Positions 3,795 to 51,440 of a DNA stretch of 64,000 bases are shown in pieces. Each line of letters opens with the position of its first letter. The stretch's first letter is position 1. The DNA lies in contig CP092872.1 of NCBI GenBank assembly GCA_030710605.1, positions 12,352,508-12,416,507 of the forward strand, written 5' to 3'. The notes below the pieces were generated by a model. It ran no database searches, was not told the DNA's origin, and saw nothing but the letters and a program-made list of their open reading frames with translations. Made by a program: the position numbers and the translations under genes. The DNA comes from Cordylochernes scorpioides (Eukaryota; Arthropoda; Arachnida; Pseudoscorpiones; Chernetidae).

Positions 3795-4062
3795 TATATA
3801 TATTAAAAATAAAGAAGGCATTTCCTGACCACGAGCACATGTGCTTTCTAGATGACAGAGCGCCATCTAGTGGAGCAAAAAAAAAAAACGTTTATTTAGC
3901 TTGCTCCGTGATATTTGGCCAACTCAATTTCTTGATAAATCAAGAAAAGCCATCTACGAACGCGTTTCGCGCTGTTAGCGCTCGTCAGCGTGGAGTAGGC
4001 TGTAACCACTGCGACCAAAAAGATTTTTGGTCCCAGAGGCTTCTTGAGAAATCAAGAAATAT
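3795..4062 (-). mobile_element. Hammerhead-bearing non-autonomous element, single unit
   Basis: This is homologous along its length to the tandem units at 38257-38820: GCACATGTGC, GCGCCATCTAGTGG, TTGATAAATCAAGAAAAG, the ribozyme, then the GGTCCCAGAGGCTTCTTGAG tail. There is no ORF. I infer a retrozyme or a decayed Penelope-type terminal repeat. The LTR element at 4074 inserted just beyond its end. The right-arm counterpart is at 23865-24130. Confidence 0.65.
3953..3994 (-). ncRNA. Type I hammerhead ribozyme motif
   Basis: Minus-strand order is stem I TCCACG, core CTGACGA, stem II GCGCT-AAC-AGCGC (5 bp), GAAA, minimal stem III A-C/G-T in the palindrome ACGCGT, U at the cleavage site, then stem I return CGTAGA. 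All invariant core bases are present. Stem I has one C-A mismatch against the ideal CGTGGA. Short stem III type I hammerheads are known from Penelope-like elements and metazoan retrozymes. Activity is an inference. Confidence 0.7.
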
Positions 4063-4073
4063 AAATATATACA

Positions 4074-12134: not shown

Positions 12135-12899
12135 ATAAATGATATTTTAATCCAATATATGCCTTTTTAATTAAAGATTTATTTATGGATTGCTCTATTT
12201 TCAAAACAATAATTTATAAAATAAAATATGAGCAAAGAGGGAAATTCACAGAGTAACAAAATATAAACATCAAAATATTTAACAACAACAAAAAGCCTTT
12301 ATTGAGGACCTCTCGTCCTATAAAGGATTCGCCAGTTTACAGAGTAATTGAAGAGAAAAGAACTAATACAGAGATATATGTAGTAGGCATAGTATAGTAT
12401 TTTCTACACTGTGACTATATACAATAGCAGCAACAAGCCTTTTACTGGAATCAAAGTCCCATACAGGATTTGTCATTCTAATCCTGACAAAGATTATTTG
12501 CATAAAATTATTTACATCAATTAGATTATGTATATAGCTTCCCCTTCTCTTCAGCCGTCTTCCAAAATTTGAAAAACGCAAAAGCTCCAGCTCTGATAAA
12601 TATCAAAATTAATACTTTGTTAATAAAATAATAAATACTTTACTACAATATTGTAGTTCTAATATTCAGCGATAGATGGAGATAATTTAATGATGATATT
12701 ATAAGCATTAATGAGCTTATTTCCTGAGAAAATAGGTCACAGTCAAGATGAGGATTTTAGTGAATGGTATCGTATTGATATGACATTTTGACAATTAAAA
12801 ATTTTTTATTGACATCTTGTCAATACATGCAATATTATATAAAATAATTAGATTTTCTGTTGTATTTTGATTGTTATTTATATAGAATTATTAGCTACT

Positions 12900-13185
12900 G
12901 CTTGATTTTGGTATACATGAGAATTTTACGATACCGCTTTGCAGTCGTGGGTATAATCTTGAAAGAATAATAATAAAAAAGTAAAGATTAGAAATTCCTT
13001 TAATTGAGCTTATAAGGTATATAAAAACATAATTTGATAAAAGTAATGCCTGGCTTAAGGCGTAAGAATAAAATAGAAAAGCTTATTTACATAATGTACA
13101 AAAGTTTTGAGCCGGCCATTGGGATAAAACAACAACGAGTTTTTATAGGCGAAGAGTGACCTCTGGCGGTCGATTTAACAGAATA
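12900..13185 (+). repeat. Dispersed repeat with CTCTGGCGGTCG end, copy A
   Basis: Shared marks are TTAATTGAGCTTATAA, GCCTGGCTTAAGGCGTAAGA, TTTTGAGCCGGCC and the terminal GACCTCTGGCGGTCGA. An inverted copy is at 37700-37985. Its outer portions also flank the hammerhead units at 38160-38260 and 38820-38870. No ORF. Confidence 0.65.
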
Positions 13186-13267
13186 TTTGGATCTATGAAA
13201 TATAATTCCAAATAAAATAATATTTTTATATAACATGTATATATACATAATACTATGTACAATAGTT

Positions 13268-13404
13268 CTTTAAATTAAAAAAACTTCGGCCAGTAAATCT
13301 TTTTTTATTGTCTTTGTATAAAGACATACAAAGACATACATATAAATAAAATCATTTGTATTGAGACAATAAAAAATATTTACTGGCCGAAGAATCTTTA
13401 ATTT
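13268..13404. mobile_element. Short foldback element, about 137 bp
   Basis: Inverted ends AACTTCGGCCAGTAAAT/ATTTACTGGCCGAAG, with TTTATTGTCT/GAGACAATAAA continuing inward, enclose a short AT-rich centre. The same left end with a different centre, a hammerhead-like motif, is at 49312-49400. Confidence 0.7.
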
Positions 13405-17745: not shown

Positions 17746-17751
17746 ACAATA

Positions 17752-23765: not shown

Positions 23766-23864
23766 CAATATTTATCCATTTTTATTTAACCTTATATAAC
23801 TTCATATATTAACACAAAGCAATAACACGACATCTATGTGTATATATTTATATTTCTTGATTTC

Positions 23865-24130
23865 TCAAGAAGCCTCTGGGAAAAAAATCTTTTTGGTCGC
23901 AGTAGTTACAGTCTACTCCACGCTGACAAGCGCTAACAGCGCGAAACGCGTTCGTGGATGGCTTTTCTTGATTTATCAAGAAATTGGGTGGACCAAATAT
24001 CACGGAGCAAGCTAAATAAACGTTTAGTTTTTTTTTTTTGCTCCACTAGATGGCGCTCTGTCATCTAGAAATGTGCTCGTGGCTAGGAAATGCCTTCTTT
24101 ATTTTTAATATATATATTATATATATGATG
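23865..24130 (+). mobile_element. Hammerhead-bearing element, right-arm copy
   Basis: Reverse complement of 3795-4062. It carries CTTGATTTCTCAAGAAGCC, the ribozyme-like segment, TTGATTTATCAAGAAATTGG and CCACTAGATGGCGC. The adjacent TATACA (23839-23844) is the unoccupied target of the LTR insertion. Confidence 0.65.
23917..23958 (+). ncRNA. Hammerhead motif, core G8 lost
   Basis: Stem I TCCACG/CGTGGA is perfect (6 bp) and stem II GCGCT-AAC-AGCGC is intact, as are GAAA and ACGCGT. The core reads CTGACAA instead of CTGACGA. The missing base is G8, known as a catalytic residue, so this copy should be inactive. The left-arm partner keeps the core but has a stem I mismatch. Confidence 0.65.
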
Positions 24131-24482: not shown

Positions 24483-24544
24483 TAATGGGAGGGCTTGGCT
24501 CATCAGTGATGAACATATATGGACATTGTAATAAAATAGTTTCA

Positions 24545-25269: not shown

Positions 25270-25870
25270 ACACAAATTCTCCTACGCGGATACAGTATAG
25301 TAGCTTATAGTGCGGTAGGATACAGTACAGTGGCATACAATTCAGTAGAATACGGTACAATAGCATAAAATGCAGTAGGATATAGTGCAATAGCATACAA
25401 TGCAGTAGGATACAGTGCAATAGCATACAATGCAGTAGGATACAGTGCAATAGCATACAATGCAGTAGGATACAGTACAGTGGTATACAGTCAAGTAGCA
25501 TACAGTATATTAGAATATAACGCAGTTGTAAACAGTACAGAAGCATACAATTCAGTAGAATACAGTAAAGTAGGAGATACATCGCAGTAGAATACAGTAT
25601 AGAATAATACAGTACAGTAGCATAGAGCGCAGTAGAAAACATTACAGTAGAAGATACAGTACAATAGAATACAGTACAGTAGGATACAGTATAATACAAT
25701 ACAGTATAAAACAGTAGAAGATACAGTACAGTAGAATACAGTAGAGTAGGATACAGTATAATACAATACAGTATAAAACAGTAGAAGATACAGTACAGTA
25801 GAATACAGTAGAGTAGGATACAGTATAATACAATACAGTATAAAACAGTAGAAGATACAGCACAAGACTG
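25270..25870 (-). repeat. 30-bp minisatellite, right arm
   Basis: Reverse complement of the CTGTA-based array at 2100-2640 (TACAGTGCAATAGCATACAA and similar). Internal block order differs from the left arm, indicating independent rearrangement. Confidence 0.85.
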
Positions 25871-27059: not shown

Positions 27060-27672
27060 TGATATCTTTTTTTTTAAGTAGTAGAGGCAATTTAGTTCAT
27101 ACTTGGTGATCTCGTGTGTCTTCCCTAAAGGTCACTGTAATATCTTTCAGAGTTATTGACTGAATCCCCATATACATGTTAAAAGGTACAACTTCCTTAA
27201 GTTTTGTCCATGAGTGTATCTTTCAGAGTTATTGTCTGAATCCCGATATACATGCTGAAAGGTACAACTTCCTTAAGTTTTGTCTATGAGTGTATCTTTT
27301 AGAGTTATTGTCTCAATCCCGATGTAAATACTAAAAGGTACAATTTCCTTAAGTTTTGTCCATGAGTGTATCTTTCAGAGTTATTGTCTCAATCCCGATA
27401 TACATGCTAAAAGGTACAATTTCCTTAAGTTTTGTCCATGAGTGTATCTTTCAGAATTATTGTCTGAATCCCGATATACATACTAAAAGGCACAACTTCC
27501 TTAAGTTTTGTCCATGAGTGTATCTTCCATAGTTATTGTCTGAATCCCGATATACATACTAAAAGGTACAACTTCCTTAAGTTTTGTCCATGAGTGTATC
27601 TTTCATAGTTATTGTCTGAATCCCGATATACATACTAAAAGTTACAACTTTTTCAAGTTTTGTCCATTGGTG
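27060..27672 (-). mobile_element. Truncated Tc1-like MITE with seven monomers, right arm
   Basis: Seven tandem monomers in reverse orientation, each ending TTAAGTTTTGTCCATGAGTG or a close variant, follow the element's inner segment (AGGCAATTTAGTTCATACTT). It is truncated at the inner end like its left-arm partner. Confidence 0.7.
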
Positions 27673-28111
27673 TATAGTAGAACTGACAAACCTAGGGACA
27701 GATAGAAATGACAGTGGTTATGAAACGACGCAGAGACACATAACAACAAAAGAACTCAGCTGTTTGTTGTTTTGTTGCATAGATACCCTAGCAACGGTCA
27801 GTAATTGACAAACCACGGGATATTGTCCATTTGACAACCAGGTGAACATGTCATTTGTACATGTGTTGCAATAACATAACTCACATTTCATTACAATTTA
27901 ATTGCCTACCTTTGTTCCCTAGAAACATATTTGAATATAATTCGGCTCTTTTGATTTCTACATAAATATAGCAGATCAACTTTATGTTGAAAATATTTTA
28001 CCACGTTTCCGACGTTACTATATGCAAATTAAGACTGGAAACAATTATGCAAATTTTTATTGCATTAAACCAAATTTGTACTGCTTTTACTGCGATGTAA
28101 AATTATTAGGA

Positions 28112-28532: not shown

Positions 28533-28765
28533 GTCCAGGGTAGCCTAGTGGACATGGCATCTACCTGGTAAGCGGAACACCGTGGGTTCGATTCCCATTC
28601 CTGGTCATTTTATTTTTACGTTTATCATTACTCTTCACAATTCATCTTTTCATACTTCATCCGTAAGGTTAGAAATAATCGTTATTTCTCCTTAAAATAA
28701 TTTTCGATTTTTCGTTTAAAAGAAACACATGCGGGATAATTTTCAAATGTCCTTCTACAAAAGGA
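28533..28765 (+). mobile_element. tRNA-derived SINE
   Basis: The 5' head is tRNA-like: A-box-like TAGCCTAGTGGACATGG, B box GGGTTCGATTCCC, acceptor-like CCAGG/CCTGG pairing, and a candidate GGT anticodon loop (CTGGTAA). The body (TTATCATTACTCTTCACAAT, GGTTAGAAATAATCGTTATT, GAAACACATGCGGGATAATT) recurs without the head at 33859-34010, 35776-36015, 40080-40255, 52500-52745, 52850-53190 and 54650-54840. Pol III transcription is expected for such heads. The stretch 28770-29520 has no supported feature. Confidence 0.75.
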
Positions 28766-33425: not shown

Positions 33426-34802
33426 TGTCCCATAAGTTCCCGGACTGGGTCCATAAAAAAAAAGGTAAGATATTTTTTTTTTTAATTATTAAAACTTTTT
33501 AAAGTAATCCCCCCTTGCTTCAACGCACCAGCGCCATCGTTTCCCCAAATTGTCGAAACAGTTTTAATAGAGCTCTTTTGGAATGCTCTTCAATGCCAAC
33601 AGCGATTTTTCTATTATGTCATCCCTGGTGTCAAAATGTCTTCCTTTTAGAACTGCTTTAAGTTTGGGGAACAGGAAAAAGTCATTTGGTGCGATGTCTT
33701 GGGAATAGGGTGGTTGAGGTAGGATTTCTGTCCCGTTTTTCGCCAAAAAAACTCGTCACAAAGTGCGCTGTGTGAGGGCGGGTATTGTTATGGTGTAGGA
33801 TCCAGTTAATAACCGTTCGGCATGCAGGAAGATACTCGTGATGAACAATGCCCTTGTTTAAAATTTTATTTTTCCGTTCGCCATTACTCTTCATGTTTCA
33901 CCTTTCCATACCTCATCCTCAAAGTTAGAAATGTCGCTATTTCTCTTTGAAAATAGATTTCGATTTTTATAAAAGAAACATTCGCGGTATAATTTCAATT
34001 TTCGTTTTATAATGCCCTTGTTATCCAAAAAAGCGACCAGCAACACCTTGTTTCTGGATTTCAATATCCTAGATTTTTTTGGTCTAGGCTCACCCTGACC
34101 TCTCCACTCAGCATATTGACGCTTGGTTTCAGGGTCATAGTCATAGACCCATGTCTCGTCGCCTGTGATTATCTTGTCTTTCTATTCCGGATCCGTTCTT
34201 GTCATTTCCAACATGTTCTCACAGGTTGCAAGCCGACACAGGTTTTGCTCATTAGTGAGGAATCTTGGGATGGATTTTGCAGGAGTCTTTTTGAGCTTCA
34301 AATCTTCGGTTACGATCCTTCCAATCGTTGTTTTAGAGATGCCTGTGTCGTGCTCTAGCTCCAGCAAAGTGGTTCGAGGATTTTCTTTTATCAAATCGGT
34401 GATTTATTGCACATTTTGGGCGTCCTTGCCGAGGTTCATTTTCAATGGAAATTTGGCCAGCTTTAAATCTAGAATGCCATTCAAAAACAGTTGTTCTCTT
34501 TGGAGAGTCATTGGGGAACACTTTATTAAGCATTTCAAAAGTTTCGGTTGCAGATATTTGAAGTTTCACACAAAATTCTATGCAAATCCTCTGCTTCAAT
34601 TTTTGTTCCATCGTAAAATCGCCGCAGCGCTAGGTGTGACCTTTAAATAAATTAGAATTACCTTGGCGCGCGCTAAAGTACCGCCTCGATATTGGTACCA
34701 CCGTGTTGCCAGATATTTTTTCTATAATAAACAGTCAAATTTATTTACATTTTTCATTTATTTATTTTTTTATGGACCCAGTCCGGGAACTTATGGGAGT
34801 TG
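33426..34802 (-). mobile_element. mariner transposon, inactive
   Basis: Terminal inverted repeats share CCATAAGTTCCCGGACTGGG and GTCCATAAA, flanked by TA (33424-33425 and 34803-34804). Minus-strand transposase pieces in order are an N-terminal helix-turn-helix (MEQKLKQRICIEFCVKLQIS; VFEWHSRFKAGQISIENEPR), TTLLELEHDTGISKTTIGRI, the first catalytic Asp (TGDETWVYDYDPETK), then LHHNNTRPHTAHF where the second catalytic Asp is lost (family pattern HDNA), and SQDIAPNDFFLFPKLK with the third Asp. Frameshifts and a 152-bp insertion at 33859-34010 break the frame. A dead but recognisable element. Confidence 0.9.
33859..34010 (+). mobile_element. SINE-body insertion inside mariner, 12-bp target duplication
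   Basis: The perfect 12-bp repeat AATGCCCTTGTT lies at 33847-33858 and 34011-34022. The 152-bp insert matches the SINE body (TTATTTTTCCGTTCGCCATT; GAAATGTCGCTATTTCTC; GAAACATTCGCGGTATAATT). The duplication length points to reverse-transcriptase-mediated insertion. It splits the transposase after NKGI. Confidence 0.85.
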
Positions 34803-34859
34803 TATATATTGAGTTGTAACTCAATTTTAACCTTAAATTATAACTTTTTGGGGTTTTCA

Positions 34860-34985
34860 GGAAGCCTCTATAATACGAATTCTGGTCGTTAAGGCATAGC
34901 CTGCACCGTGCCTGACAAGGGCCGACAATCCGAAACGCATACATGGTTGGCTTTTCTTAATTCATCATGAAATTGAAGTGAAGCC
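34860..34985 (+). mobile_element. Decayed hammerhead-bearing element
   Basis: It keeps GAAGCCTCT at one end, CCTGACAAGGGCCGACAATC, CGAAACGCATACATGGTTGG and CTTTTCTTAATTCATC, in the order of the 3795-4062 family. Core and stems are degraded (CTGACAA, interrupted stem I), so it is presumably inactive. Confidence 0.5.
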
Positions 34986-37555: not shown

Positions 37556-37699
37556 GTTGGCTTAAATAAGCATCATGCAAAATACGACATATATATATAT
37601 ATGTTATATTAAAATAATTTATTTATAATGTTCAATTAAAATATTTTATTTAGAATTATGTTAAAGTGTTATTTTATTTAAAATTATAATGTCATAAAT

Positions 37700-37985
37700 A
37701 TAAATACTCTGTTTAAATCGACCGCCAGAGGTCATGCTTCCCATATAAAATCTCATTGTTGTTCTTCCCCGGCTGGTCGGCTCAAACCATATGTAATTAT
37801 GTAAATATTCTTTTGTTTTTCATATTTTTTATTCTTACGCCTTAAGCCAGGCTGTACTTGTACAAAATTATGTTTTTAATATGAATTCATTTCACAGCTC
37901 AATAAATCAATATCTGATCAAGACCATTTTATTATTATTCTTTTAAGAAATTTAGCCACGACTGCAAACGATACCATTAAGTAAT
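37700..37985 (-). repeat. Dispersed repeat with GCGGTCG end, copy B
   Basis: Reverse complement of 12900-13185: TCGACCGCCAGAGGTCATG, GGCTGGTCGGCTCAAA, TCTTACGCCTTAAGCCAGGC. No ORF. The stretch 37985-38160 is AT-rich with a TA run and nothing supported. Confidence 0.65.
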
Positions 37986-38040
37986 AATGTACTCAAAAGA
38001 ACCAGCAATTGATCTCTATCTCAAAATAATATTTTTTATA

Positions 38041-38071
<31 letters not shown>

Positions 38072-38445
38072 GGCAAATTTGTTTGATATATAATTTTTGC
38101 TTAGGTTGTTTATGAATACATGAGAATATTTGTGATATTGCAGTGTCATGGTAATAATTAAGAATAACAATTAGCTTTAATTGAGCTGATAAACATAATA
38201 AAGGAAGAAATACCTGATTTGAGGCGTAAAGAAGAAAATAAAATATTACATATTAACATATGAAAAAACGAAAGAAAAAAATAGAAGATAAAAGATCAGG
38301 TGTTGAAATCAAAAATAAAAATGGCATATCCTGACCAGGAGCACATGTGCTTACCATCTGGTGGAACAGAAATCAACTAAACATTGATTTAGCCTGTTCC
38401 CTGATATTTGGCCAACCCAATTTCTTGATAAATCAAGAAAAGCGA

Positions 38446-38488
38446 TCCACGAACGCGTTTCGCGCTTTTTGGCGCTCGTCAGCGTGGA
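38446..38488 (-). ncRNA. Type I hammerhead ribozyme, consensus-complete
   Basis: Minus strand: stem I 38488-38483 (TCCACG), CTGACGA 38482-38476, stem II GCGC 38475-38472, loop CAAAAA, stem II return GCGC 38465-38462, GAAA 38461-38458, minimal stem III within ACGCGT 38458-38453, cleavage-site U at 38452, and stem I return CGTGGA 38451-38446. Stem I is 6 of 6 paired and stem II 4 of 4. Predicted cleavage is between 38452 and 38451 after a GUU triplet (GUC is commoner). The palindromic stem III suggests pairing between two ribozymes, as proposed for such minimal forms. Confidence 0.8.
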
Positions 38489-38796
38489 GTAGGCTGAACC
38501 ACTGCGATCAAAAAAAATTTTTGGTCCCAGCAGCCTCCTGAAAAACCAAGAAATGGGTATTTAAGGCCAAACTTGCGTAAATACGCTTAACACATAAAAA
38601 AAAACGAAATAAAAAATAGAATATAAAAAGATCAGGTGTTGAAATCAAAAATAAAAATGGCATATCCTGACCAGGAGCACATGTGCTTTACAGAAGGCAG
38701 AGCGCCATCTGCTGGAACAGAAATCAACTAAACATTGATTTAGCCTGTTCCCTGATATTTGGCCAACCCAATCTCTTGATAAATCAAGAAAAGCCA

Positions 38797-38820
38797 TCCA
38801 CGAACGCGTTTCGCGCTTTT
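38797..38820 (-). ncRNA. Truncated hammerhead (3' half only)
   Basis: It has GCGC, GAAA, ACGCGT, U and CGTGGA of the same ribozyme. The stem II 5' strand, CTGACGA and stem I 5' strand are lost at 38820. It cannot cleave alone. It marks the second unit boundary. Confidence 0.7.
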
Positions 38821-39699
38821 ATATAATGAGTTTATATAGGGAAAACCGCGACATCTGGCGGTCGACTTTTTTTCAATGATTTCAACTGTGATATTATAAC
38901 ACTATACGCGCTGAGTTTGTTTATACACAAATTTAATGCCTCGAAAAAGGTTGGCGTTTAGCCAACCGAAATACTAGCAAATAAATATTTTATTCAATCC
39001 AATATATGTTTTTTTTTATTATCTAATGATTTAAATATGGATTGCTCTATTTTAAGAACACAGTTTAAATATATTTAAAATGTATAATGATGCACTAACG
39101 CTCCATCTGTTATCAAAATTCGAAACTATAGTATGTAAAAAATATTTATCTTTTTTTTTTCAATTATATTAAAGAATAAAATTCATTGATGAACTATAAC
39201 AAAAATGATGAGTTATATATACTCTCAACTAACAAAAAAATATTGAATTTTCAAAAATATTTTTTACAGTTTGGAGCTATTGATCGTCTGTTATAAATTA
39301 TTGAAGAGTTCTTCTGCGAAGTATTGTACGTGACGTTCGGCTGTTGATTTATTTACTTCACTATGGCGTCTGCTTTCTCTCTAATTTGACAAATATTTCG
39401 TCTGGTTTGGATTTAAAATATATAGGATGTTTAATTATTTTATCTATTTTTCAACCTATAAAACAAGTTTTTAAAATCTCTGTGAAAATGTTTAATACCT
39501 CCACGCTAAATATTTTTTTTCCGCCTAAAATAATTTTAAATATGAAATTTCGTTGTTAGATTATCAAAGTTTTGAATATTTTTATTACATTTATGAAACT
39601 ATGTATATATATATAATTAATATATTTTTTATTATTTTTAAAAAAATTTAATGAATTTTTTAAAACACATTCTCTAATATCGTTTTGAAAAAAGAGCAA

Positions 39700-39825
39700 T
39701 CCATAAATAAATCTTTAAATAAAAAGGCATATATTGGATCAAAATATCATTTATTATCATTTATTATTGGTAAAATAAATGATATTTTGATCCACAATAT
39801 ATGCCTTTTTATTTAAAAATTCTCT
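39700..39825. mobile_element. Foldback hairpin around ATATATGCC
   Basis: AAATAAAAAGGCATATATTG and GATCAAAATATCATTTATT are mirrored by AATAAATGATATTTTGATCC and ATATATGCCTTTTTATTTA. The copy-2 equivalent is at 54285-54385. Single-arm relatives are at 12150-12225 and 39000-39060. Confidence 0.8.
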
Positions 39826-40079
39826 AATATGTGTATTCTTGAAATTCTCAATGTCCATTTGAAGGAATTACTTCATATTACAACTTCAATTTTAAAGTTT
39901 TACACAAAAATTAATAAGGAGAGCGCTTTACGATGTTTCAGATTATATTATTATAAAAAACGTAAATTTTCTAATGCATCAAATTCGTTTATGTATTTTA
40001 AACCAAAAAGGTTGAGCTTTTAAAGCATCTCCGTGATCAAAATTCCAATACAATAGAAAATTCAATAAATACATGTTAT

Positions 40080-40255
40080 AATACAATATATTGTGGCTTA
40101 TGATTGTAGAATGACATGGACAATTATATCGCAAATGTTTCTTTTGAACGAAAAATCGAAATTTATTTTAAGGTGAAATAACGATTATTTCTAACCTTGG
40201 AGTATGAAAGGATGAATTGTGAAGAGTAATGATAAACGGAAAAATTAAGTATTCA
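40080..40255 (-). mobile_element. SINE-body fragment
   Basis: Reverse complement of the SINE body (GAACGAAAAATCGAAATTTA; GATTATTTCTAACCTTGGAG; GAATTGTGAAGAGTAATGAT), ending in CAGGGATGGGAA from the tRNA-head junction. The copy-2 equivalent is at 54650-54845. Confidence 0.65.
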
Positions 40256-40974
40256 GGGATGGGAACTTTCATTTGAATTTGCATATGTATATTTTGAAAT
40301 AATGTATATAAAATAGAATGTAAACATTTACATGCAAATATCCACATAGGATATAGCGTGTGTTTTGTAATGAATAAATCAAAAGAGAATCAACGTGATA
40401 TATTTTCTTCAATTTGATGTTATTTTGTAGCTATGAACAGATTACAAAGTTCTATCAAATGGAATTTCAATGGTTCAGGATTCTAGCGAATAGAGACAGG
40501 TTAGTTTTACTTCATAATGCATTCATATTTTTGCTGTGTTCACTTTTCAATATTCTATATTTAGAATTTTAAAGACATTTTGTAGCATAAGAACTACACA
40601 CACTGCTATATTTTCTATATAGGTGATATCAATTGGTAACTTTGTAAAACTTTCTTTGCACTAAATATATTGAAAACAAATTTTGCGTGCAATGTAATGC
40701 ATTAAATAAAGTAACTTTCTCAATATACTTTGTTAATAGTGAAAAAAAAAAAACTTCGAAGGAATTTATCCGTGAAAAATTCACGGGAAGAGAAAAATTC
40801 ATAGAAAATTACAGAGTGAGGAAAACATTTACTTTCGCATAAATCTTCTTTTGAAGCAGATGATGGATTAGAATCTGGACACTGTTCCGCCATGTTGGAT
40901 CGCCGACTGCTCCTCCTGGTGGCGGCTTCTCGAACTATTTCCCGGCTAGGCAACCTCTGCACTGATAGTGAGTA

Positions 40975-41490
40975 TATATATATATAGTGGGAATGTATGT
41001 AAATATTGTCGCTATATGTAAATATTGCAGGTTTATGCAAATATTGTGGGTATATGCAAATATTGTGGGTATATGCAAATATTGTGGGTATATGTATAAA
41101 TGATTGGTATATGTCACTATTATGGGTATATACAAATATTGTGGGCATATGTAAATATAATGGTATATGTAAATATTGTGTGTATATAATAACGAATAGA
41201 TTCAAAAAGGATAAGTTTCTTTATTTTTTATAGAGCAGAATTATATTGTATAATACATTGTGTGTATATGCAAATATTATAGGTATATGTAAATATTGCG
41301 AGGTATTAACTATTGCGGGTATATGCAAATATTGTGGGTATATGTAAACATTATGGGTATATGTAAAAATAATATGTATATGTAAATATTTAGGGTATGT
41401 GCAAATATTATGAGTATCTGTAAATATTGTGATAAATATTTAAATAGTGCGGGTATAAGTAAGAATTATGGGTATGTGCACATATTGCAA
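40975..41490 (+). repeat. 19-bp minisatellite, copy 1
   Basis: GGGTATATGCAAATATTGT units, perfect around 41040-41095 and drifting outward. Open frames on both strands are repeat shadows. It is adjacent to a short GC-rich patch (40880-40960). Confidence 0.85.
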
Positions 41491-41834
41491 CATATATGCG
41501 TGCATTTCGAGTTCTGACAGCCAGTGATATACACTCAAAACGTTAAACCTATCAAACTTCTGTTTTTATTTGAACCAAAGTTTTGATGACCCACTTTCCC
41601 CATTTTCAAGGTGACAAAGTTTCAATGTTCTGATAAGCTGGTAAATCCAAATAAAAGATTAATGAGTTCCTCCTATCGAGTTTATGCAATCCTATCCTAT
41701 GGAAATCATTTTTTTTCTATAGCCATTGATCTTCTGCAATCAATATTAAGTTTCTTTCTCATAGAATTATTGTTCTTGTGCGATTTTGAAGTCCCGGCAA
41801 AGAGAAAATTACTGAATCAATAATATATATAGTG

Positions 41835-41980
41835 AAAATTCGAAACTATTATAGACGCGCATGGTTCTTTTACAAATTAAACAATTTCTACTGTCCTTAC
41901 TGTAATGGAAAAATTAATGGGAGGGCCTGGCTCATCAGTGGTGAACCTTCCCATCGGTTTCGCCAGTTTAATCTACCATA
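41835..41980 (+). mobile_element. Palindromic-core element, copy 1
   Basis: AATTCGAAACTATTATAGAC, CTACTGTCCTTACTGTAATG, GGGAGGGCCTGGCTCATCAG, TGGTGAACCTTCCCATCGG and TTTCGCCAGTTTAATCTACC. This is one arm of the foldback layout at 35255-35535. Copy 2 at 56400-56560. Confidence 0.75.
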
Positions 41981-42162
41981 TCGCTGTTATATTGCATTTT
42001 TCGATCTTCCTTTAATAGTGATACTGATGCTAGACTCTTGGAATGGGTATTCTAGATGAACTATGGAATAAGTTTTGAGGAAAGTAGAATTAAAGAAGAA
42101 TAAGGCATCATAATATTTATAGTGGCTATTAAGAATTAAAAATAAATATCAAGAAAGAGTTC

Positions 42163-42300
42163 TTCGGGCATGGCCTGGATGATGATGCCCTGGCGTCCAC
42201 CAAGACACACATCTATAGGTACTTCTTCGGTGTGGAACTGAGGAGTGAAGACCTTGTCTGGAGGAGGACTCTCTCAAGGTGGGGAAGTCTTCCTTGCTGA
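42163..42300 (+). pseudogene. Coding-like 45-codon C-terminal fragment, unidentified
   Basis: The plus frame reads FGHGLDDDALASTKTHIYRY, then FFGVELRSEDLVWRRTLSRW and GSLPC to a stop. Copy 2 (56725-56876) keeps the same frame with substitutions and a small in-frame indel (ELRSVQEYLVWRRTLSRWEN). Frame preservation suggests real coding ancestry, most likely a retroelement ORF end. I do not recognise the family. Confidence 0.35.
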
Positions 42301-42479
42301 AGAAATTTGTACATAAATACAACTATATATTCCCCTATATTTTATCTACCCTTTTTATTTATCCTCTTTATTATATATTACCTCTTCATTTTATCATGAT
42401 TATTCTCTTCAACAATTGATCAGAGAAGAATCAAATATTTGTTGAATTGTCAATTGTCAGGAAATGTGCTTCAGGTGTC

Positions 42480-42545
42480 GCGGTGTAGGAATGGTATAAA
42501 CTGTTGAATTTCAACATTCGACCCAGGATCGAATCCCTCATTGTC
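42480..42545 (+). mobile_element. tRNA-like SINE head, copy 1
   Basis: GGTGTAGGAATGGTATAAAC resembles an A box, and AGGATCGAATCCC is a B-box-like sequence. TGTTGAATTTCAACA may be the anticodon arm. The copy-2 equivalent (57137-57205) keeps both boxes with changes. The downstream body is not resolved. Confidence 0.4.
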
Positions 42546-42639
42546 AACTTTATTTACTAAAGACATTTGCTTCAAAGATCCCCGTATATTTCAGAAGTAC
42601 AATCTCAACTATCCTCTTTTTCTCTTCATCTTTCTTATC

Positions 42640-42740
42640 CCCACTGTATCACAAATAGAATATCGAATTTGTTGAACCTTTGATGGTTTCAGCTGTAGAT
42701 GAATAGAGTTTATCAATGGATGAGCTAAAGCAGAACCCGA
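42640..42740 (-). pseudogene. LINE C-terminal fragment related to 11943-12134
   Basis: The minus frame reads SSIDKLYSSTAETIKGSTNS, aligning with SSIDELYSSPADTIKSLKLY of the zinc-knuckle remnant at 11943-12134. The cysteine part is missing. It is also present in copy 2 (57315-57380). Confidence 0.4.
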
Positions 42741-42858
42741 ACAGTAAGTGGAAGTAACCAAACGGGGCACTGACACACTTCTAATTACAAATTTTGAATT
42801 GCCTTCTGACATGTGGTGTGTACTTGTAGTAATGATTACCGTGATTCCCATGACCTCT

Positions 42859-44080
42859 GTACCACGGATAGTTTGGATAGGTACTACGCGGACGACATCG
42901 TCCTGTTCATCCGCAGTGAGGAGCAGTTCAGGGTTGCGATCTCCATCTTCTGCGCGCCTCGGGTATAAAGAAAATTTCACCAAGAGAGCAAAGGTCTATG
43001 GTGCGGCGCCTAGCGTGTCAGTAACGACGCTCCGCTGGTCATCTCCCGATCGTCTGTAGAGATCATGGTTCTAGGCTGCACTGGGAAATCAAAATTCAGC
43101 CCAAGAACGACATATCCTGGTCCTGCTCGAAACTGCTATAACGAGGTGGTCTCCCTACACCCGCGGTCTCTCTTTCGTCGGCCGGGCCAGACCCGCCAAC
43201 TCCTTGGTTCTCTCCTCGGTGGTCCATCACATCCACGGCTACCTGCCTACCGACCGTACCATCCACAAGATCCAGGCCCGTCTTGTGCGGTTCATCTGGG
43301 TGCCGGAGCGAATCGCCATGCTGCCTGGAAGCGTCCTAGCGAGGCCTGGAGATCTCTAGGAGGATTCGGACTAATTTATCTCAAGTTCCAGGTTCAATTG
43401 CCATGCTTCAAGGGCGTGCAGCGTGGCAACCGCAGCGCCTATTGTTGGCTGGTCGAGAGCGGCGCGTGGATCTATCCTCCTTCATCCGGGTCCTGGCTCC
43501 TGCCGCGGCATCTCCGGATTCTTAAGATCAGAGAGTCGATCGCTGACATCCTTGCTCTGAAACACCGCGCGCTTACAACGCCTCAGCTCTTAAACCTCCC
43601 CATCATTGGTGATTGCCGTCTTCTACGGCCACCCGACCTTTTGGCTTCTTCGTGATGGGTTGGCGCCTGCGTTGGAGACTTTGTGGATCCTGCCGCTCCC
43701 CTCACTCGCCCAACGCGCTGTGCCCTGGCGGACGCAAATTCTTTTATCCAACTTCTGCCGGCGTTTTGAGGACGAGAGCTTTCGCGGGATCTTCCGCGTT
43801 GGCACCATCCTGGAGGCTGTGGTGCTTCGCGGGACGAGGGTGTATCACCACCCGCACTGCCCGCCGATTGCTGGAACACCTGCTCCTGGCTGCCCTGCCC
43901 ATCACCCAGTTTCCCAGAAAGTGGGAGAAACATATGAATCTCCCCATCAACATAGATTGGTCGTCGCTCCGTACCTGCGCCTTCTCCGGGCACAGCGCGG
44001 ACATGACTGAGGCTGGCAATGCACGCCTTGTCCCATCCTGCCTCGGCCTGAGAGTCCTGAGTCACCTGTGGGTCCTATAG
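42859..44080 (+). pseudogene. LINE reverse transcriptase 3' remnant, copy 1
   Basis: It starts within the palm: YYADDIVLFIRSEEQFRVAI from 42882 (motif C). Then, with frameshifts, come NFTKRAKVYGAAP and LVLSSVVHHIHGYLPTDRTI, followed by HKIQARLVRFIW, the thumb/connection typical of non-LTR reverse transcriptases. A GC-rich C-terminal part follows to about 44080 with no single open frame. It is broken in at least three places. The YADD neighbourhood resembles the remnants in the inverted-repeat arms but is not the same copy. Other long frames here are shadows. Confidence 0.8.
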
Positions 44081-44557
44081 ACTGATCCGATAGACTAATC
44101 TATCCGATAGGTTTATCTTTCCTATAGACTGGTTTATTCAATACACTGATTTATCCAAAAGAGAGGTCGAACAAATAGAATTACCTGGTAGATATATAAT
44201 TTTACCAGCCCTGCCCGAGATGACAGATAGAGGAACAGATAGGGTGGTTAGCTGACAATATCTAATAAGAGCAGTCCAATAGCAATCAACAGTCAGTGTG
44301 GTGAGCTAGTCTGTGGTGGGACTTGTAAAAAGCCACAAAAATTCAATGCCAAAATTGGGTGGATGATAAATTATGTGTCACCACTAAGGTAAGCACTGCC
44401 AACCATAATCTGAACCCATGTCGAAGTCAGCGGCCAAGATCCTATCTGTAGGTAAGTCAGACTGCCACAGTATGTCCTTCAAATTCCTGGAATTAACAGC
44501 ACACATAGATTCACCCATCATTAGCTTGCCTTGTTGGGCTCTTAGTCGAGGAAAATA

Positions 44558-45155
44558 CACTCAGGGACAAAATATCAAGTAAGTGGAAAGTCTAGCTATC
44601 ACTGGTTTTCTGTTTTTTTTTTTTTTTTTTTTTGAAGGAGTCAGAGATATTTTGTTCATACTTGGTTATCTCGTGTGTCTTTAATAAAGGTCACTTTAAT
44701 ATCTTTCAGAGTTATTGTCGTAATCCCGATATACATGCTGAAAGGTACAACTTCCTTAAGTTTTATCCATGAGTGTATCTTTCAGAGTTATTGTCTGAAT
44801 CCTGATATACATGCTGAAAGGTACAACTTCCTTAAGTTTTGTCTATGAATGTATCTTTCAGAGTTATTGTCTGAATCCTGATATACATGCTAAAAAGTAC
44901 AACTTACTTAAGTTTTGTCCATGAATGTATCTTTCAGAGTTTTTGTCTGAATCGCAATATACATGCTAAAAGGTACAACTTCCTTAAGTTTTATCCATGA
45001 GTGTATATTTTAGAGTTATTGTCTGAATCCCGATATACATACTGAAAAGTACAACTTCCTTAAGTTTTGTCCATGAGTGTATCTTTCAGAGTTATTGTCT
45101 GAATCCCGATATACATACTCAAAAGTACAACTTCCTGAAGTTTTATCCATGAGTG
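44558..45155 (-). mobile_element. Complete Tc1-like MITE with six monomers, copy 1
   Basis: TA then CACTCAGGGACAAAATATCA at the left. At the right, GAAGTTTTATCCATGAGTG then TA. The inner segment (GTCAGAGATATTTTGTTCAT, TAATAAAGGTCACTTTAATA) is followed by six 76-bp monomers. This shows both ends and the inner array in one element and is the clearest model of the family. Confidence 0.85.
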
Positions 45156-45344
45156 TATAACACAAACAGAACAATAAGTTCTCCTGTCAACTATATCCCA
45201 AAGCGGCGCAATCATTTAAAGTTTAATAAAATTTCAATAATTAAATTAGGAGCAATATTAACCTGAGCAAAGAAGGTGATCTTTCATTGAATGTTGGAAC
45301 ATGTCGATCACATCTTTATTATTTTGAGAAATAGGTCATCTCCT

Positions 45345-45680
45345 AATCGTGCAACTAAAAGTTACTGATGGCTTGCGCCATCTATCGGATGGCTATGATA
45401 TTTTTGATGTACCTTTAGAGATATTTTTTACCATTTATACCTACTAAGGATAGAAGTCCTATGAAGGTCTAGTGTCCAATGGTTGCTATGATATTTATGT
45501 TGTACCTTTACTGATATTTGACCATTTGTACCTTACATAGTATAGTGGTCTTTTATATAGATTCAGTGTACAATTATTTCTATGGTATTTATGATATCCT
45601 TTCGAGATATTTGAGCCATACCATTTTTATTCCAATAAATGGATTAACCAATCAGTAACTTTTAGTTGCATAATCAGGAG
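45345..45680. mobile_element. Foldback element with GCGCCATCT box, expanded centre
   Basis: Ends GTGCAACTAAAAGTTACTGA and ATCAGTAACTTTTAGTTGCA are inverted. The left arm has TTGCGCCATCTATCGGA. The centre carries diverged repeats of TATGATATTTATGTTGTACC. In copy 2 (60055-60180) the centre is short and the hairpin nearly perfect. Confidence 0.75.
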
Positions 45681-46004
45681 ATGTTCTTTTTCTCAATTTA
45701 TCCCCCTGATCCAAGTACAAATTCACTTTTGTACTATTTTTCTTTATTTTTGTTTAAAAGGTTCTCTCTCAGTAAGATCGCCGGTCAGATATGAGACAGG
45801 TACAATGCTCTATATACTTGGGATAGATAGAGCGGGTTGGAACTTACCCTACTGTACTGGAAAAAAGACGACCCTGTCTAAATGTTTACTCTCCGCCTTC
45901 CATATTTGTCCACATTAGAATGACTCAGCTGTGGTGACAATGTCCTCCACTTGGTCTCACCTCTCTCCCAGCTACTTGGAGATGAGATTTAGAGACCAAC
46001 ATCC

Positions 46005-46215
46005 TCACATAGGTTTTATATTGTTGGAATGTCCATTTACATAGGTTTTACATTGTTGTAATGTCCATTTACATAGGTTTTACATTGTTGGAATGTCCAT
46101 TTACATAGGTTTTACATTGTTGGAATGTCCATTTACATAGGTTTTACATTGTTGGAATGTCCATTTACATAGGTTTTACATTGTTGGAATGTCCATTTAC
46201 ATAGGTTTTACATAT
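46005..46215 (+). repeat. 32-bp minisatellite, copy 1 (about 6 units)
   Basis: TTACATAGGTTTTACATTGT plus TGGAATGTCCAT. Copy 2 has about 16 units at the matching site (60505-61005). A relative with GACCATTT is at 50995-51440. Confidence 0.9.
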
Positions 46216-46249
46216 TAAAGAAATTGAAACAATCCACCACGATATTTTC

Positions 46250-46350
46250 TTCTTTCAAATAAAGCAACCTTTCCTACTCTCCTTAATGCTATGGAAAAAA
46301 TATTGGGAAGGTCTGGCTCATCAGTGATGAACCTTCCCAGCGGTTTCGTC
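46250..46350 (+). mobile_element. Palindromic-core element fragment, copy 1
   Basis: CTCCTTAATGCTATGGAAAA, TTGGGAAGGTCTGGCTCATC, AGTGATGAACCTTCCCAGCG and GTTTCGTCAGG. Here GGGAAGG and CCTTCCC are matched where other copies have GGGAGGG and CCCTCCC, a paired change. It lies immediately left of the satellite block. Confidence 0.65.
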
Positions 46351-46373
46351 AGGTTCCTAACAACACTCATAGA

Positions 46374-48941
46374 CAAAAGGAAGTTGTACCTTTTAACATG
46401 TATATCAGGAATCAGACAATAACTCCGAAAGATACACTCATGGACAAAACTTAAGAAAGTTGTACCTTTTAACATGTATATCAGGAATCAGACAATAACT
46501 CCGAAAGATACACTCATGGACAAAACTTAAGAAAGTTGTACCTTTTAACATGTATATCAGGAATCAGACAATAACTCCGAAAGATACACTCATAGACAAA
46601 AGGAAGTTGTACCTTTTAACATGTATATCAGGAATCAGACAATAACTCCGAAAGATACACTCATGGACAAAACTTAAGAAAGTTGTACCTTTTAACATGT
46701 ATATCAGGAATCAGACAATAACTCCGAAAGATACACTCATAGACAAAAGGAAGTTGTACCTTTTAACATGTATATCAGGAATCAGACAATAACTCTGAAA
46801 GATACACTCATAGACAAAAGGAAGTTGTACCTTTTAACATGTATATCAGGATTCAGACAATAACTCTGAAAGATACACTCATAGACAAAAGGAAGTTGTA
46901 CCTTTTAACATGTATATCAGGATTCAGACAATAACTCTGAAAGATACACTCATGGACAAAACTTAAGGAAGTTGTACCTTTTAGCATGTATATCGGGATT
47001 CAGACAATAACTCTGAAAGATACACTCATGGACAAACCTTAAGGAACTTGTACCTTTTAGCATGTATATCGGGATTCAGACAATAACTCTGAAAGATACA
47101 CTCATGGACAAAACTTAAGGAAGTTGTACCTTTTAACATGTATATCAGGATTCAGACAATAACTCTGAAAGATACACTCATGGACAAAACTTAAGGAAGT
47201 TATACCTTTTAACATGTATATCAGGATTCAGACAATAACTCTGAAAGATACACTCATTGACAAAACTTAAGGAAGTTGTACCTTTTAACATGTATATCAG
47301 GATTCAGACAATAACTCTGAAAGATACACTCATAGACAAAAGGAAGTTGTACCTTTTAACATGTATATCAGGATTCAGACAATAACTCTGAAAGATACAC
47401 TCATAGACAAAAGGAAGTTGTACCTTTTAACATGTATATCAGGATTCAGACAATAACTCTGAAAGATACACTCATGGACAGAACTTAAGAAAGTTGTACC
47501 TTTTAACATGTATATCAGGAATCAGACAATAACTCTGAAAGATACACTCATAGACAAAAGGAAGTTGTACCTTTTAACATGTATATCAGGATTCAGACAA
47601 TAACTCTGAAAGATACACTCATAGACAAAAGGAAGTTGTACCTTTTAACATGTATATCAGGATTCAGACAATAACTCTGAAAGATACACTCATGGACAAA
47701 ACTTAAGGAAGTTGTACCTTTTAGCATGTATATCGGGATTCAGACAATAACTCTGAAAGATACACTCATGGACAAACCTTAAGGAACTTGTACCTTTTAG
47801 CATGTATATCGGGATTCAGACAATAACTCTGAAAGATACACTCATGGACAAAACTTAAGGAAGTTGTACCTTTTAACATGTATATCAGGATTCAGACAAT
47901 AACTCTGAAAGATACACTCATGGACAAAACTTAAGGAAGTTATACCTTTTAACATGTATATCAGGATTCAGACAATAACTCTGAAAGATACACTCATTGA
48001 CAAAACTTAAGGAAGTTGTACCTTTTAACATGTATATCAGGATTCAGACAATAACTCTGAAAGATACACTCATAGACAAAAGGAAGTTGTACCTTTTAAC
48101 ATGTATATCAGGATTCAGACAATAACTCTGAAAGATACACTCATAGACAAAAGGAAGTTGTACCTTTTAACATGTATATCAGGATTCAGACAATAACTCT
48201 GAAAGATACACTCATGGACAAAACTTAAGGAAGTTGTACCTTTTAGCATGTATATCGGGATTCAGACAATAACTCTGAAAGATACACTCATGGACAAACC
48301 TTAAGGAACTTGTACCTTTTAGCATGTATATCGGGATTCAGACAATAACTCTGAAAGATACACTCATGGACAAAACTTAAGGAAGTTGTACCTTTTAACA
48401 TGTATATCAGGATTCAGACAATAACTCTGAAAGATACACTCATGGACAAAACTTAAGGAAGTTATACCTTTTAACATGTATATCAGGATTCAGACAATAA
48501 CTCTGAAAGATACACTCATTGACAAAACTTAAGGAAGTTGTACCTTTTAACATGTATATCGGGATTCAGACAATAACTCTGAAAGATACACTCATGGACA
48601 AAACTTAAGGAATTTGTACCTTTTAACATGTATATCAGGATTCAGACAATAACTCTGAAAGATACACTCATGGACAAAACTTAAGGAAGTTGTACCTTTT
48701 AACATGTATATCAGGATTCAGACAATAACTCTGAAAGATACACTCATTGACAAAACTTAAGGAAGTTGTACCTTTTAACATGTATATCAAGATTCAGACA
48801 ATAACTCTGAAATATATTACAGTGACCTTTTTTGAACGAGATAACCAAGTGTAAACAAAATTGCATCTGTCTCCTTTAAAATAAAACGGACAACCAGTGA
48901 TATCAAAGACTTTTAACTTCCTTAAGTTTTGTCCATGAGTG
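46374..48941. mobile_element. Tc1-like MITE expanded into a satellite (about 33 monomers), copy 1 only
   Basis: Left end CACTCATAGACAAAAGGAAG, right end TTAAGTTTTGTCCATGAGTG. Monomers are of two kinds: 76 bp, and shorter ones lacking the ACTTA segment (ATAGACAAAAGGAAG). Multi-monomer blocks repeat: the pair marked by TTTTAGCATGTATATCGGGA followed by GGACAAACCTTAAGGAACTT occurs at about 46980, 47720 and 48243. In copy 2 the same site has one monomer (61164-61240). Confidence 0.9.
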
Positions 48942-49311
48942 CATATTATAGACAAGATATGTATTCACATATAAAAATTAATCAGATTGTGTGTTAAATG
49001 AGGAATAACAAATTTAAAAAACAAAATAAGAATAAACGTGAAGCACAAGGATTAGCAATGAGTATAAAAAGCTAAATACGGATAGTTCTTACTAGAATTC
49101 TAAGTTTCCATATAACTCGTACCTGATCCCATAGTACACAGTTTCACTTTTCTACTATTTCAAAGTATTAGAACTGTTTTCAAATTATATGTCTCTTTTT
49201 GGGATTGGAATTAAATGGTAGCGAAGAAATAATTTATATTTTATTATTTAATTATTCAATGAAAATATTTAAAAACAGATTTATTATTTTATATTTGTAA
49301 AATTATCATTT

Positions 49312-49560
49312 ATGTTTCTTCAAATTAAAGAAATTTCGGCCAGTAAATCTTTTTATTGTCTCGACGTTTCGACAAAAATATTTTGTTCTCGTCAGGAGCG
49401 AACAAAATTTAAAACATTTGGCAAAGCGTTAGAAATTATTCTAAGGCTGCAAGGGCGTTCTCACGCGATATTCGAAATTTTGTACAACATCTAAAGCACG
49501 AGTCAAAAAAAAAAAACAAATATTTAACTCACAAAAGACTATGATTTTTTAAATAAATCA
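49312..49560 (-). mobile_element. Insertion carrying a second hammerhead-like motif
   Basis: Present in copy 1, absent from copy 2 (about 61980-62005). The left end AAATTTCGGCCAGTAAATCT and TTTATTGTCTC are shared with the foldback at 13268-13404. The rest (GCAAAGCGTTAGAAATTATT, GCAAGGGCGTTCTCACGCGA) is unique in the window. No valid gene. Confidence 0.6.
49355..49399 (-). ncRNA. Hammerhead-like motif, family 2
   Basis: Minus strand: CTC, CTGACGA (49395-49389), stem II GAACAAAATATTTTTGTC (7 pairs with one bulged A), GAAA, C and GTC (palindromic ACGT as minimal stem III), then GAGAC. The core and GUC cleavage triplet are complete. Stem I is only CTC/GAG (3 bp). Plausible but weaker than 38446-38488. 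Confidence 0.5.
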
Positions 49561-49894
49561 TTCAATATTCTCTAGCTGTAGATAGTATTGTTGATAATTG
49601 TCGACTAGTCGTGCTGACGTTATCAATAAATACGCTTATATCTCAAGATATTCCAAGACTTGATTTCTAAGCTACAATATTATTAACAAATCTTTATCAG
49701 ATGAATTTTTCAACTAATTTCATAATCAATTGAAATAAATGTCACATCTCTGCACAAACGCAATTAAACTGTAGAAAGCTTTCGTGATAGAAATCCATAT
49801 TAGATAGAAGTAAATTATTTTCTTCTTCTTTTATTCTTACAATTTATACTTGAGAACTTTGATTTTGGTATCATTGAAAACAACAACAATAAGA

Positions 49895-50205
49895 AAAGAT
49901 CAAATATATTAAATAAACTCTGAGAGAAAACTGACAAAAACTATAACATGGCTTAGAACAAAACACTATAAAGGAATGGCAATAATCCAGATGGCACAAG
50001 AACCTATAGAGCATGCAACAGCTGTCCTGGTGTGGACACCTACTCACATATTCTCATGCCCAGCAATGGCCGCAGCCTTGCAGAAAATTGACTTAGACCC
50101 AGAGCAGCAGCTTTACACACCCAAGATAGTGGATATTGCTGCTGCTGTGATGGAGATGCATGGAGACATCTGAGACTCTTCTTTGGACACGACAACAACA
50201 ACAAC
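49895..50205 (+). pseudogene. LINE ORF C-terminus and 3' tail, copy 1
   Basis: TPTHIFSCPAMAAALQKIDL, then DPEQQLYTPKIVDIAAAVME and MHGDI to a stop, followed by GGACACGACAACAACAACAA. A deletion removed the CxxC part of the knuckle that copy 2 keeps. This is the single-copy source structure of the LINE-tail tandem arrays. Confidence 0.8.
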
Positions 50206-50994
50206 ATTGGAAGCAACGTTTTTTAGCTGTTCCCTATGTTAGTCATTATTATTATTTTATTTCCAAAGCGCTATATCCCGCAAGGGATACATGCGCCAAA
50301 CAAGTAGAAAAGTTTATTTACATAAGTTATTTACATTATTCAACACATGAAGAACACTAGAGATACAGATTTTGTAGAAAGTTTAGAATGTATTTACAAA
50401 ATAAATTAAGCTTTAAATATGATTTTATCGGAAATCAAATCGTTAAGTTCACAAAAAAAAATAGTTCATTCTTCCTTCTATAATCTTGAAATGCTGGGCA
50501 TTCGATCAGTAGATGTCTTGAGGTTTGTTGAAATATCCATAGTTTATATCATCCAACAAGATTCTTCAGTTCATTCTTATAAAAAAACAGGCAGAAGACT
50601 AAAGTAATCTATTATTAATAGTAAAAAGAAATGAGTCTTAGAACTAGTTAATATTGGCTATTCCACGAAAAATATTCTGACTTGTTGTACCTGAAAATCT
50701 TGTCAGAAAATCAAATTGTTCAACCCATTATTAATGATGTTTACGAAAGTTTGTTTTTTGCCCCAAAATTCCGTAGATCTCTTGGCAATAATGGCGGAAT
50801 TCTCCGTTAATTTGCTCTCCCTGCATAGTTTACATATTGATCAACTTTGTGGTTTGGAGAGTTACAGTTCCTTCTCTAGCTTGGATGGATAATTCTACCG
50901 AGCTACGTAACTACATGAGTTTAGTATGTCGGAAATGTAGATAAATGTATGTCTAATTGTGTTATTGTATAAATGTTCATTTACATTGGTTTAC

Positions 50995-51440
50995 ATTATT
51001 ATAATATTCATTTAAACAGATTTTACATTGTTGGAATGTCAATTTACATAGGTTTTACATTGTTAGAATGACCATTTACATAGGTTTTACATTGTTGGAA
51101 TGACCATTTACATAGGGTTTACATTGTTGGAATGACCATTTACATAGGTTTTCCATTGTTGGAATGACCATTTACATAGGTTTTACATTGTTGGAATGAC
51201 CATTTACATAGGTTTTAGATTGTTGGAATTCCATTTATATAAGTTCTATATTGTTGCAAATCCATTTACATAGGTTTTATATTGGTTAAATGTTCATTTA
51301 TTTAGGTTTTACATTGATTGAATGTCCATTCACCTTGGTTTTACATTAGGTAAATGTCCATATACATAGGTTTTGCATTGTTTTCATTCCATTTACATAG
51401 GTTTTACATTTTTTAAATGTTCATTTACATAGGTTTTACA
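50995..51440 (+). repeat. 32-bp minisatellite, GACCATTT variant, copy 1
   Basis: ACATAGGTTTTACATTGTTG units with GAATGACCATTT, drifting in the last 200 bp. It matches 63460-64000. Confidence 0.88.

What the first reader, a model, noticed from the sequence alone, without database searches (positions are those of the whole stretch)
38257..38820. Retrozyme-like tandem element with a complete type I hammerhead ribozyme
Seen: two head-to-tail units of about 340 bp. The first carries every hammerhead part in order, with a 6-bp stem I, a 4-bp stem II, CTGACGA, GAAA and a minimal palindromic stem III (ACGCGT). Known: metazoan retrozymes are non-coding tandem units of this size with this ribozyme type, giving circular RNAs. 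Inferred: minus-strand transcripts would release a 351-nt monomer if both ribozymes were intact; here the second is truncated, so this is a near-functional relic or a partial copy.
Basis: partly seen in the sequence, partly recalled or inferred. Interest (0 to 1): 0.82.

Follow-up and report, generated by a model that had tools for sequence, protein, structure and literature searches.

The report
Animal-type retrozyme with palindromic hammerhead ribozyme
This stretch of what looks like an animal genome holds a small jumping element whose RNA should cut itself and close into a circle; the kind is already known, but this copy lies inside another repeat and pairs one whole ribozyme with half of a second.

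Summary
On the minus strand, 38441-38495 carries a type I hammerhead with an intact core; the cleavage half of a second one lies 351 nt upstream. Best Rfam match: Hammerhead_HH9, E 6.9e-7, below its gathering score. The element is a 558-bp insertion (38263-38820), one unit plus a 5'-truncated unit, 97.1% alike. It sits in a copy of another repeat that has two uninterrupted copies in the window; 30-37 bp of target are missing and no target duplication was found. Three further copies carry the hammerhead, each with a defect; two are one insertion duplicated. The most divergent keeps 14 of 15 pairs, with three double compensatory changes. The 351-nt monomer is predicted strongly self-paired (z -4.8).

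This fits a metazoan non-LTR retrozyme: a new member of a known kind. One correction: stem III is one pair with a palindromic loop, as in axolotl, so the ribozyme probably works better across two units, and the truncated unit keeps the substrate half; one core could in principle cut both sites (energy model only). Activity was not tested; no host genome is held.

The parts
38263..38820 (-). Whole retrozyme insertion: 5'-truncated unit A (from 38820) followed by unit B (to 38263). 38821-38824 (ATAT) is unassigned.
   Evidence: Flanks align to two uninterrupted copies of another repeat up to 38825 and from 38262 on; units repeat
38441..38495 (-). Unit B hammerhead ribozyme, type I, core intact, 14 of 15 pairs standard (C-C in the outer stem I); scissile bond after U38452 (GUU triplet)
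38792..38820 (-). Half hammerhead of unit A: stem II 3' strand, GAA, ACGCGT palindrome, cleavage site after U38803, stem I 3' strand; no catalytic 5' half
   Evidence: (25.3 bits)
38452..38802 (-). Predicted 351-nt monomer (linear or circular RNA) between the two cleavage sites; 40.2% GC; circular fold -105.7 kcal/mol, z -4.8
3802..4060 (-). Copy C, one unit's worth, with hammerhead 3948-4001; one mismatch in the inner stem I
23852..24109 (+). Copy D, in the inverted duplicate of the copy C locus; hammerhead 23910-23963, 15 of 15 pairs, but CTGACAA instead of CTGACGA
34845..34975 (+). Copy E, older subfamily, boundaries approximate; hammerhead 34898-34952 with three compensatory pair changes, CTGACAA, one inserted C and one broken pair
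38821..38899 (-). 5' flank: part of a host repeat with a TATA-like stretch (38838-38831); 71% like 13205-13134
38106..38262 (-). 3' flank: continuation of the same host repeat
37615..38191 (+). Uninterrupted copy of the host repeat (empty-site paralogue); ends limited by the stretch I aligned, and its last 86 bp overlap the other strand's 3' flank, so one of the two is over-extended
12700..13277 (-). Second uninterrupted copy of the host repeat, 415 of 528 aligned positions identical to the first; ends limited by the stretch I aligned

Best explanation
A metazoan non-LTR retrozyme: a small non-coding retroelement that spreads as self-cut, circularised RNA copied back by a reverse transcriptase from another element. 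Shown here: the hammerhead, the 1.6-unit tandem, further related copies, pair-preserving changes between subfamilies, and insertion into another repeat. Inferred from the published model: transcription of the minus strand, cleavage after U38803 and U38452, ligation of the 351-nt monomer into a circle by a host tRNA ligase, and reverse transcription round the circle, which would explain more than one unit in one insertion and a ragged 5' end. Inferred here: because stem III is a palindrome with one base pair within a unit, the core of unit B would first pair with the site in unit A (6-bp stem III, type III topology) and later cut its own site weakly, so one core could free the monomer.
For: Complete type I core, 1 hit in the window against 0 in 40 randomised windows; HH9 E 6.9e-7. 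Alignment of 4 copies: 57 of 60 pair cells standard, 3 pairs with compensatory double changes (0 in all six slid controls; 7 of 500 shuffles reach 3). Unit spacing lies in the published 150-450 bp range. Circular monomer fold z -4.8 against 100 dinucleotide-preserving shuffles. Empty-site paralogues. No ORF of 110 aa or more over 38263-38820 in six frames. [quoted passage not shown] Energy model: with the 5' end at 38820 and the 3' end from 38440 to 38360 (7 lengths), the A-site fold lies 1.8-2.6 kcal/mol above the ensemble, the own-site fold 7.3-13.2.
Against: No expression, cleavage or circle was observed. Each of the 3 other hammerhead-bearing copies has a defect, and B itself has a broken pair in the outer stem I; the family may be dead at these loci. 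No target site duplication at the one insertion whose ends are known, unlike the 15-bp ones published for Nematostella. The A-site preference reverses for 3' ends from 38340 on (5 lengths: own site 5.3, A site 8.6-11.0); with the 5' end at 38900 it holds at 5 of 12 lengths and is reversed at 7. Neither fold is the ground state. Below Rfam's gathering score. Host taxon unknown, so 'metazoan' is inferred.
Confidence: 0.85

Rival explanations
1. The units are remnants of the pseudo-LTRs of a Penelope-like element (PLE); these also carry type I hammerheads in tandem, which may cleave as dimers.
For: Minimal stem III and tandem arrangement are shared with PLE hammerheads (passages of PMC7761336; PMC11167929).
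Against: PLE hammerheads are described as minimal variants lacking helix III or the loop-loop interactions; here stem I has an outer helix beyond an internal loop, with 15 of 16 of its cells paired in the 4 copies. Of 10 ORFs scanned with Pfam (of 50 listed) two gave RVT_1 and none an endonuclease; these two fragments lie about 0.5 kb from copies C and D, beyond another repeat.
Confidence: 0.07
2. A retrozyme-derived but dead repeat: the hammerhead is a fossil without RNA processing today, at this locus or in the whole family.
For: 3 of 3 other copies have a defective hammerhead; units in this window are single or 1.6-mer.
Against: A and B are 97.1% alike and B's core is intact; compensatory changes point to past selection on the ribozyme. 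It may still be true of this locus.
Confidence: 0.25
3. Chance hammerhead-like sequence in an ordinary repeat.
For: Below Rfam's gathering score.
Against: 0 hits in 40 randomised windows; four related copies with pair-preserving changes.
Confidence: 0.01

Closest known systems
Metazoan non-LTR retrozymes (Cervera & de la Pena 2020, PMC7229834; mussel units 350-390 bp, axolotl 330/350 bp)
   Same: Type I hammerhead, non-coding tandem units of the same size, GC below 50%, self-paired predicted monomer, several loci
   Different: Here a 1.6-unit insertion with half a ribozyme and a target deletion instead of a duplication; sequence relation to a published retrozyme could not be tested (none held)
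Axolotl hammerhead HHR_Amex1, described as like the amphibian satellite ones (PMC7229834)
   Same: Stem III of one base pair capped by a palindromic tetraloop; works better as dimer there
   Different: Not compared by sequence. That paper calls invertebrate stem III longer, but PMC3088659 (passages) suggests dimeric forms for Aedes and Nematostella too, so this does not place the host
Rfam RF02275 Hammerhead_HH9
   Same: Same stem-loop II context (GAGC.CCAAAAAG.GCGAAAC) and two-part stem I
   Different: HH9's consensus has a 3-bp stem III; match 34.5 bits against a gathering score of 52
Penelope-like element pseudo-LTR hammerheads
   Same: Tandem, minimal stem III, possible dimeric action
   Different: Here the outer stem I and internal loop are present and no coding element was found attached

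Membership tests
Metazoan non-LTR retrozyme | Type I hammerhead with all core residues | tested here: met
   38441-38495 minus; of the 3 other full copies, C has the core but a stem I mismatch, D and E have CTGACAA
Metazoan non-LTR retrozyme | Tandem units of 150-450 bp | tested here: met
   Spacing 351/336 bp, about 1.6 units; no second unit was found beside copies C, D and E
Metazoan non-LTR retrozyme | Non-coding, GC below 50% | tested here: met
   No ORF of 110 aa or more over the insertion; monomer 40.2% GC
Metazoan non-LTR retrozyme | No LTR, PBS or PPT | tested here: inconclusive
   No direct repeat over the insertion's ends other than the units themselves; PBS and PPT not searched
Metazoan non-LTR retrozyme | Multiple dispersed copies | tested here: met
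   4 hammerhead-bearing copies plus one half in 64 kb, about 3 independent insertions; genome-wide not testable
Metazoan non-LTR retrozyme | Target site duplications over 4 bp, when present | tested here: inconclusive
   None found: no shared word of 6 between 40-nt and 56-nt junction stretches, two of 5; 30-37 bp of target missing. Optional in the paper
Metazoan non-LTR retrozyme | Highly self-paired monomer RNA | tested here: met
   z -4.8, 63% paired, prediction only
Metazoan non-LTR retrozyme | Self-cleavage and circular RNA in the host | not testable with these tools
   No RNA data or bench
Penelope-like element | ORF with reverse transcriptase and usually GIY-YIG endonuclease next to the hammerhead unit | tested here: not met
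   10 of the 50 ORFs against Pfam: RVT_1 in two, nothing else at E 0.01; none of the 50 touches the insertion; smaller ORFs not scanned
Rfam HH9 | Score at or above the gathering threshold | tested here: not met
   34.5 against 52 bits

The most novel reading that the evidence does not exclude
A one-and-a-half ribozyme element: reverse transcription round the RNA circle ended inside the hammerhead and left the substrate half of a second one. The palindromic stem III lets the single intact core cut the upstream half-site during transcription in a type III topology and later its own site in type I topology, so that 1.6 units form a minimal active retrozyme, in a host repeat that supplies a TATA-like stretch ending 10 nt upstream of the insertion.
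Probability: 0.3. Interest if true: 0.5.

Novelty: new member of a known kind. Interest (0 to 1): 0.36.

Why it matters
It adds a well-delimited retrozyme locus with paralogous empty sites, which is what is needed to ask how these elements integrate: here without a target duplication and with a short target deletion. It also gives a cheap test of whether half a hammerhead beside a whole one suffices to release a monomer; if so, more of the ragged genomic copies may be active than counts of paired intact ribozymes suggest.

Tried and rejected
Relatives outside the window: 5 pattern scans of viral contigs and 1 of genome contigs. (the last with the 76-bp satellite): 0 each; 22 contigs; 3 contigs; genome contigs: 1 (a Legionellales MAG). 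By eye (not counted) several of the 22 have a hammerhead with a longer stem III, and some hits look like coding sequence. With model R1 the best of 20 matches up to E 1 over L001-L023 scored 23.5 bits; over L024-L026, filters off, the best of 4 up to E 10 scored 13.1. The window copies score 89.6-104.6, but the model was built from them. One of the three (L026) has a partly pairing stem I and II by eye; at E 0.19 I did not follow it further. I take none as a relative. Rfam on copy C gives HH9 at 21.5 bits, E 0.0033; on copy E no hammerhead family up to E 1; copy D was not run alone.

Rejected: that the shared 5' boundary of copies C and D marks the end of a longer element. It is made by an LTR-type element (4078-9483, terminal repeats 99.28% identical) inserted beside copy C; the two loci are one inverted duplication. 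Rejected: the reverse transcriptase fragments at 2652-3269 and 24635-25117 as the coding part of the retrozyme; another repeat lies between (by eye). The fragment at 2652-3269 found nothing among solved structures even at E 10, so its clade is open. The ORF at 3734-4078 overlapping copy C is on the other strand and was taken as chance.

Papers: six searches, listings seen. PMC7229834: abstract, Results parts 1-2 of 3 and Discussion. PMC4918200, PMC7761336, PMC3088659, PMC11167929, PMC10085705: passages only. Lunse 2017 and Cervera 2014 are not held and are known to me only from citations and recall. I make no claim that the half-hammerhead idea is absent from print. That the second G of CTGANGA is needed for activity is recalled.

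Full report
Observation. The tandem and the hammerhead are real. Direct repeats lie 351 and 336 bp apart; units A (upstream on the minus strand) and B agree at 200 of 206 aligned positions, and B lacks 15 nt that A has. The minus strand of 38441-38495 holds every hammerhead part in order. A scan for the complete core with paired stems finds this one site in the window and none in 40 randomised windows. Rfam's HH9 matches at 34.5 bits, E 6.9e-7, below its gathering score of 52; at gathering thresholds only a tRNA is called in the window. Cleavage would fall after U38803 and U38452, leaving a 351-nt monomer.

Family. Blast of the element against the window, and a covariance model built from four copies and run with filters off, give four full hammerhead-bearing copies and the half in unit A (E 0.00014); the next match has E 0.29. 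The four scores are not independent evidence, as the model was built from them. Copies C and D are one insertion in an inverted duplication, so there are about three independent insertions in 64 kb. C has a mismatch in the inner stem I; D and E read CTGACAA where CTGACGA is expected, and E has an extra base before it and one broken pair in stem II. B has an intact core but a C-C mismatch in its outer stem I, where A, C and D have G. On the alignment of the four, 57 of 60 pair cells are standard, and three pairs differ on both sides in E (two in stem I, one in stem II); no slid control shows any such change, and 7 of 500 shuffles reach three. With four sequences this is modest, but it points to past selection on the ribozyme fold.

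Insertion. The sequence beside unit A (38899-38825) and beyond unit B (38262-38106) belongs to one repeat family with uninterrupted copies at 13277-12700 (minus) and 37615-38191 (plus), 415 of 528 aligned positions alike. These ends are set by the stretches I aligned, and 38106-38191 is claimed on both strands, so one alignment runs too far in AT-rich sequence. Against 37615-38191 the flanks stop at 37757 and resume at 37788, leaving 30 bp of target without counterpart; against the other copy they stop at 13134 and resume at 13102 (31 bp) or, without the element's own T run, at 13096 (37 bp). The insertion is 38263-38820; 38821-38824 is unassigned. The junction stretches share no word of 6 and only two of 5. 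The 5' end falls in loop II of the hammerhead and the 3' end in a run of T. These are paralogues, not alleles, so a later deletion at the site cannot be excluded.

Mechanism. In the published model (PMC7229834) such units are transcribed, cut by the hammerhead, closed by a tRNA ligase and copied back by another element's reverse transcriptase; more than one unit in an insertion follows from a circular template. The 351-nt monomer folds as a circle at -105.7 kcal/mol against a mean of -79.5 (sd 5.5) for 100 shuffles. Stem III here is a single A-U pair with a CGCG loop, as described for axolotl HHR_Amex1, which cleaves poorly alone and far better as a dimer; palindromic stem III sequences are noted for other repeat-type hammerheads (supplement legend in PMC3088659). 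In the energy model the 59-nt hammerhead alone lies at -15.0 with stem III open, against -18.5 for a misfold; forcing the one-pair stem III in the 43-nt form costs about 6 kcal/mol.

The half ribozyme. Unit A keeps ACGCGU-U|CGUGGAUGGCU. Two units can pair ACGCGU with ACGCGU, giving 6 bp, and the stem I 5' strand of B can pair with A's 3' strand, where the outer helix has 4 bp against 3 in B itself. As two strands, the lowest fold of B with A keeps this stem I and stem II but alters stem III. In one transcript with the 5' end at 38820 and the 3' end from 38440 to 38360 (7 lengths), the A-site fold lies 1.8-2.6 kcal/mol above the ensemble and B's own-site fold 7.3-13.2; from 38340 on (5 lengths) the order reverses, 8.6-11.0 against 5.3. 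With the 5' end at 38900 the A site is favoured at 5 of 12 lengths (38440, 38430, 38420, 38410, 38380) and B's own site at the other 7. So the idea needs cutting during transcription and rests on an energy model without tertiary contacts.

Membership and novelty. Size, ribozyme type, tandem form, GC, lack of coding and dispersal meet the published description; target duplications, optional there, were not found; expression is untested. PLE membership is not supported: no endonuclease among the 10 ORFs scanned, and stem I has an outer helix. The organism is unknown; that it is an animal is inferred from the hammerhead type and the repeat-rich sequence. I file it as a new member of a known kind.

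Noticed in passing
4078-9483: LTR-type element: direct repeats 4078-4908 and 8651-9483 are 99.28% identical over 833 bp; one ORF of 110 aa or more between them (7241-7612), without a Pfam match; inserted at the 5' end of retrozyme copy C.
   Followed up: partly
2116-10776 and 22546-25864: Inverted duplication (93.9% over 9481-10776 / 23845-22546), carrying retrozyme copies C and D and a reverse transcriptase fragment in each arm.
   Followed up: partly
39286-51441 and 53864-63908: Direct duplication in several blocks, 87-94% identical in the rows shown (the output was cut).
   Followed up: no
82-312, 17750-20332, 27141-27675, 44700-45158, 46377-48816, 59635-59865: One 76-bp satellite unit in arrays of 3 to 34 copies in both orientations.
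   Followed up: no
28533-28760: tRNA-Thr-like sequence (GGT anticodon) followed by a tail repeated at 33863-34012 and 53022-53188; possibly a tRNA-derived SINE.
   Followed up: no
60060-60165: Hairpin (by eye) of which 40 bp are 80% like a segment inside the retrozyme (38702-38741; E 2.5e-4).
   Followed up: no
3440-3700 and 24200-24480: Inverted-end repeat with ATACCTCGCTTTGCGTCG (by eye) between the retrozyme copies and the reverse transcriptase fragments.
   Followed up: no
L022:9622-9965: An IMG/VR viral contig with two identical hammerhead-like sites 319 nt apart; by eye the surroundings are not repeated. No Rfam match at gathering thresholds.
   Followed up: partly
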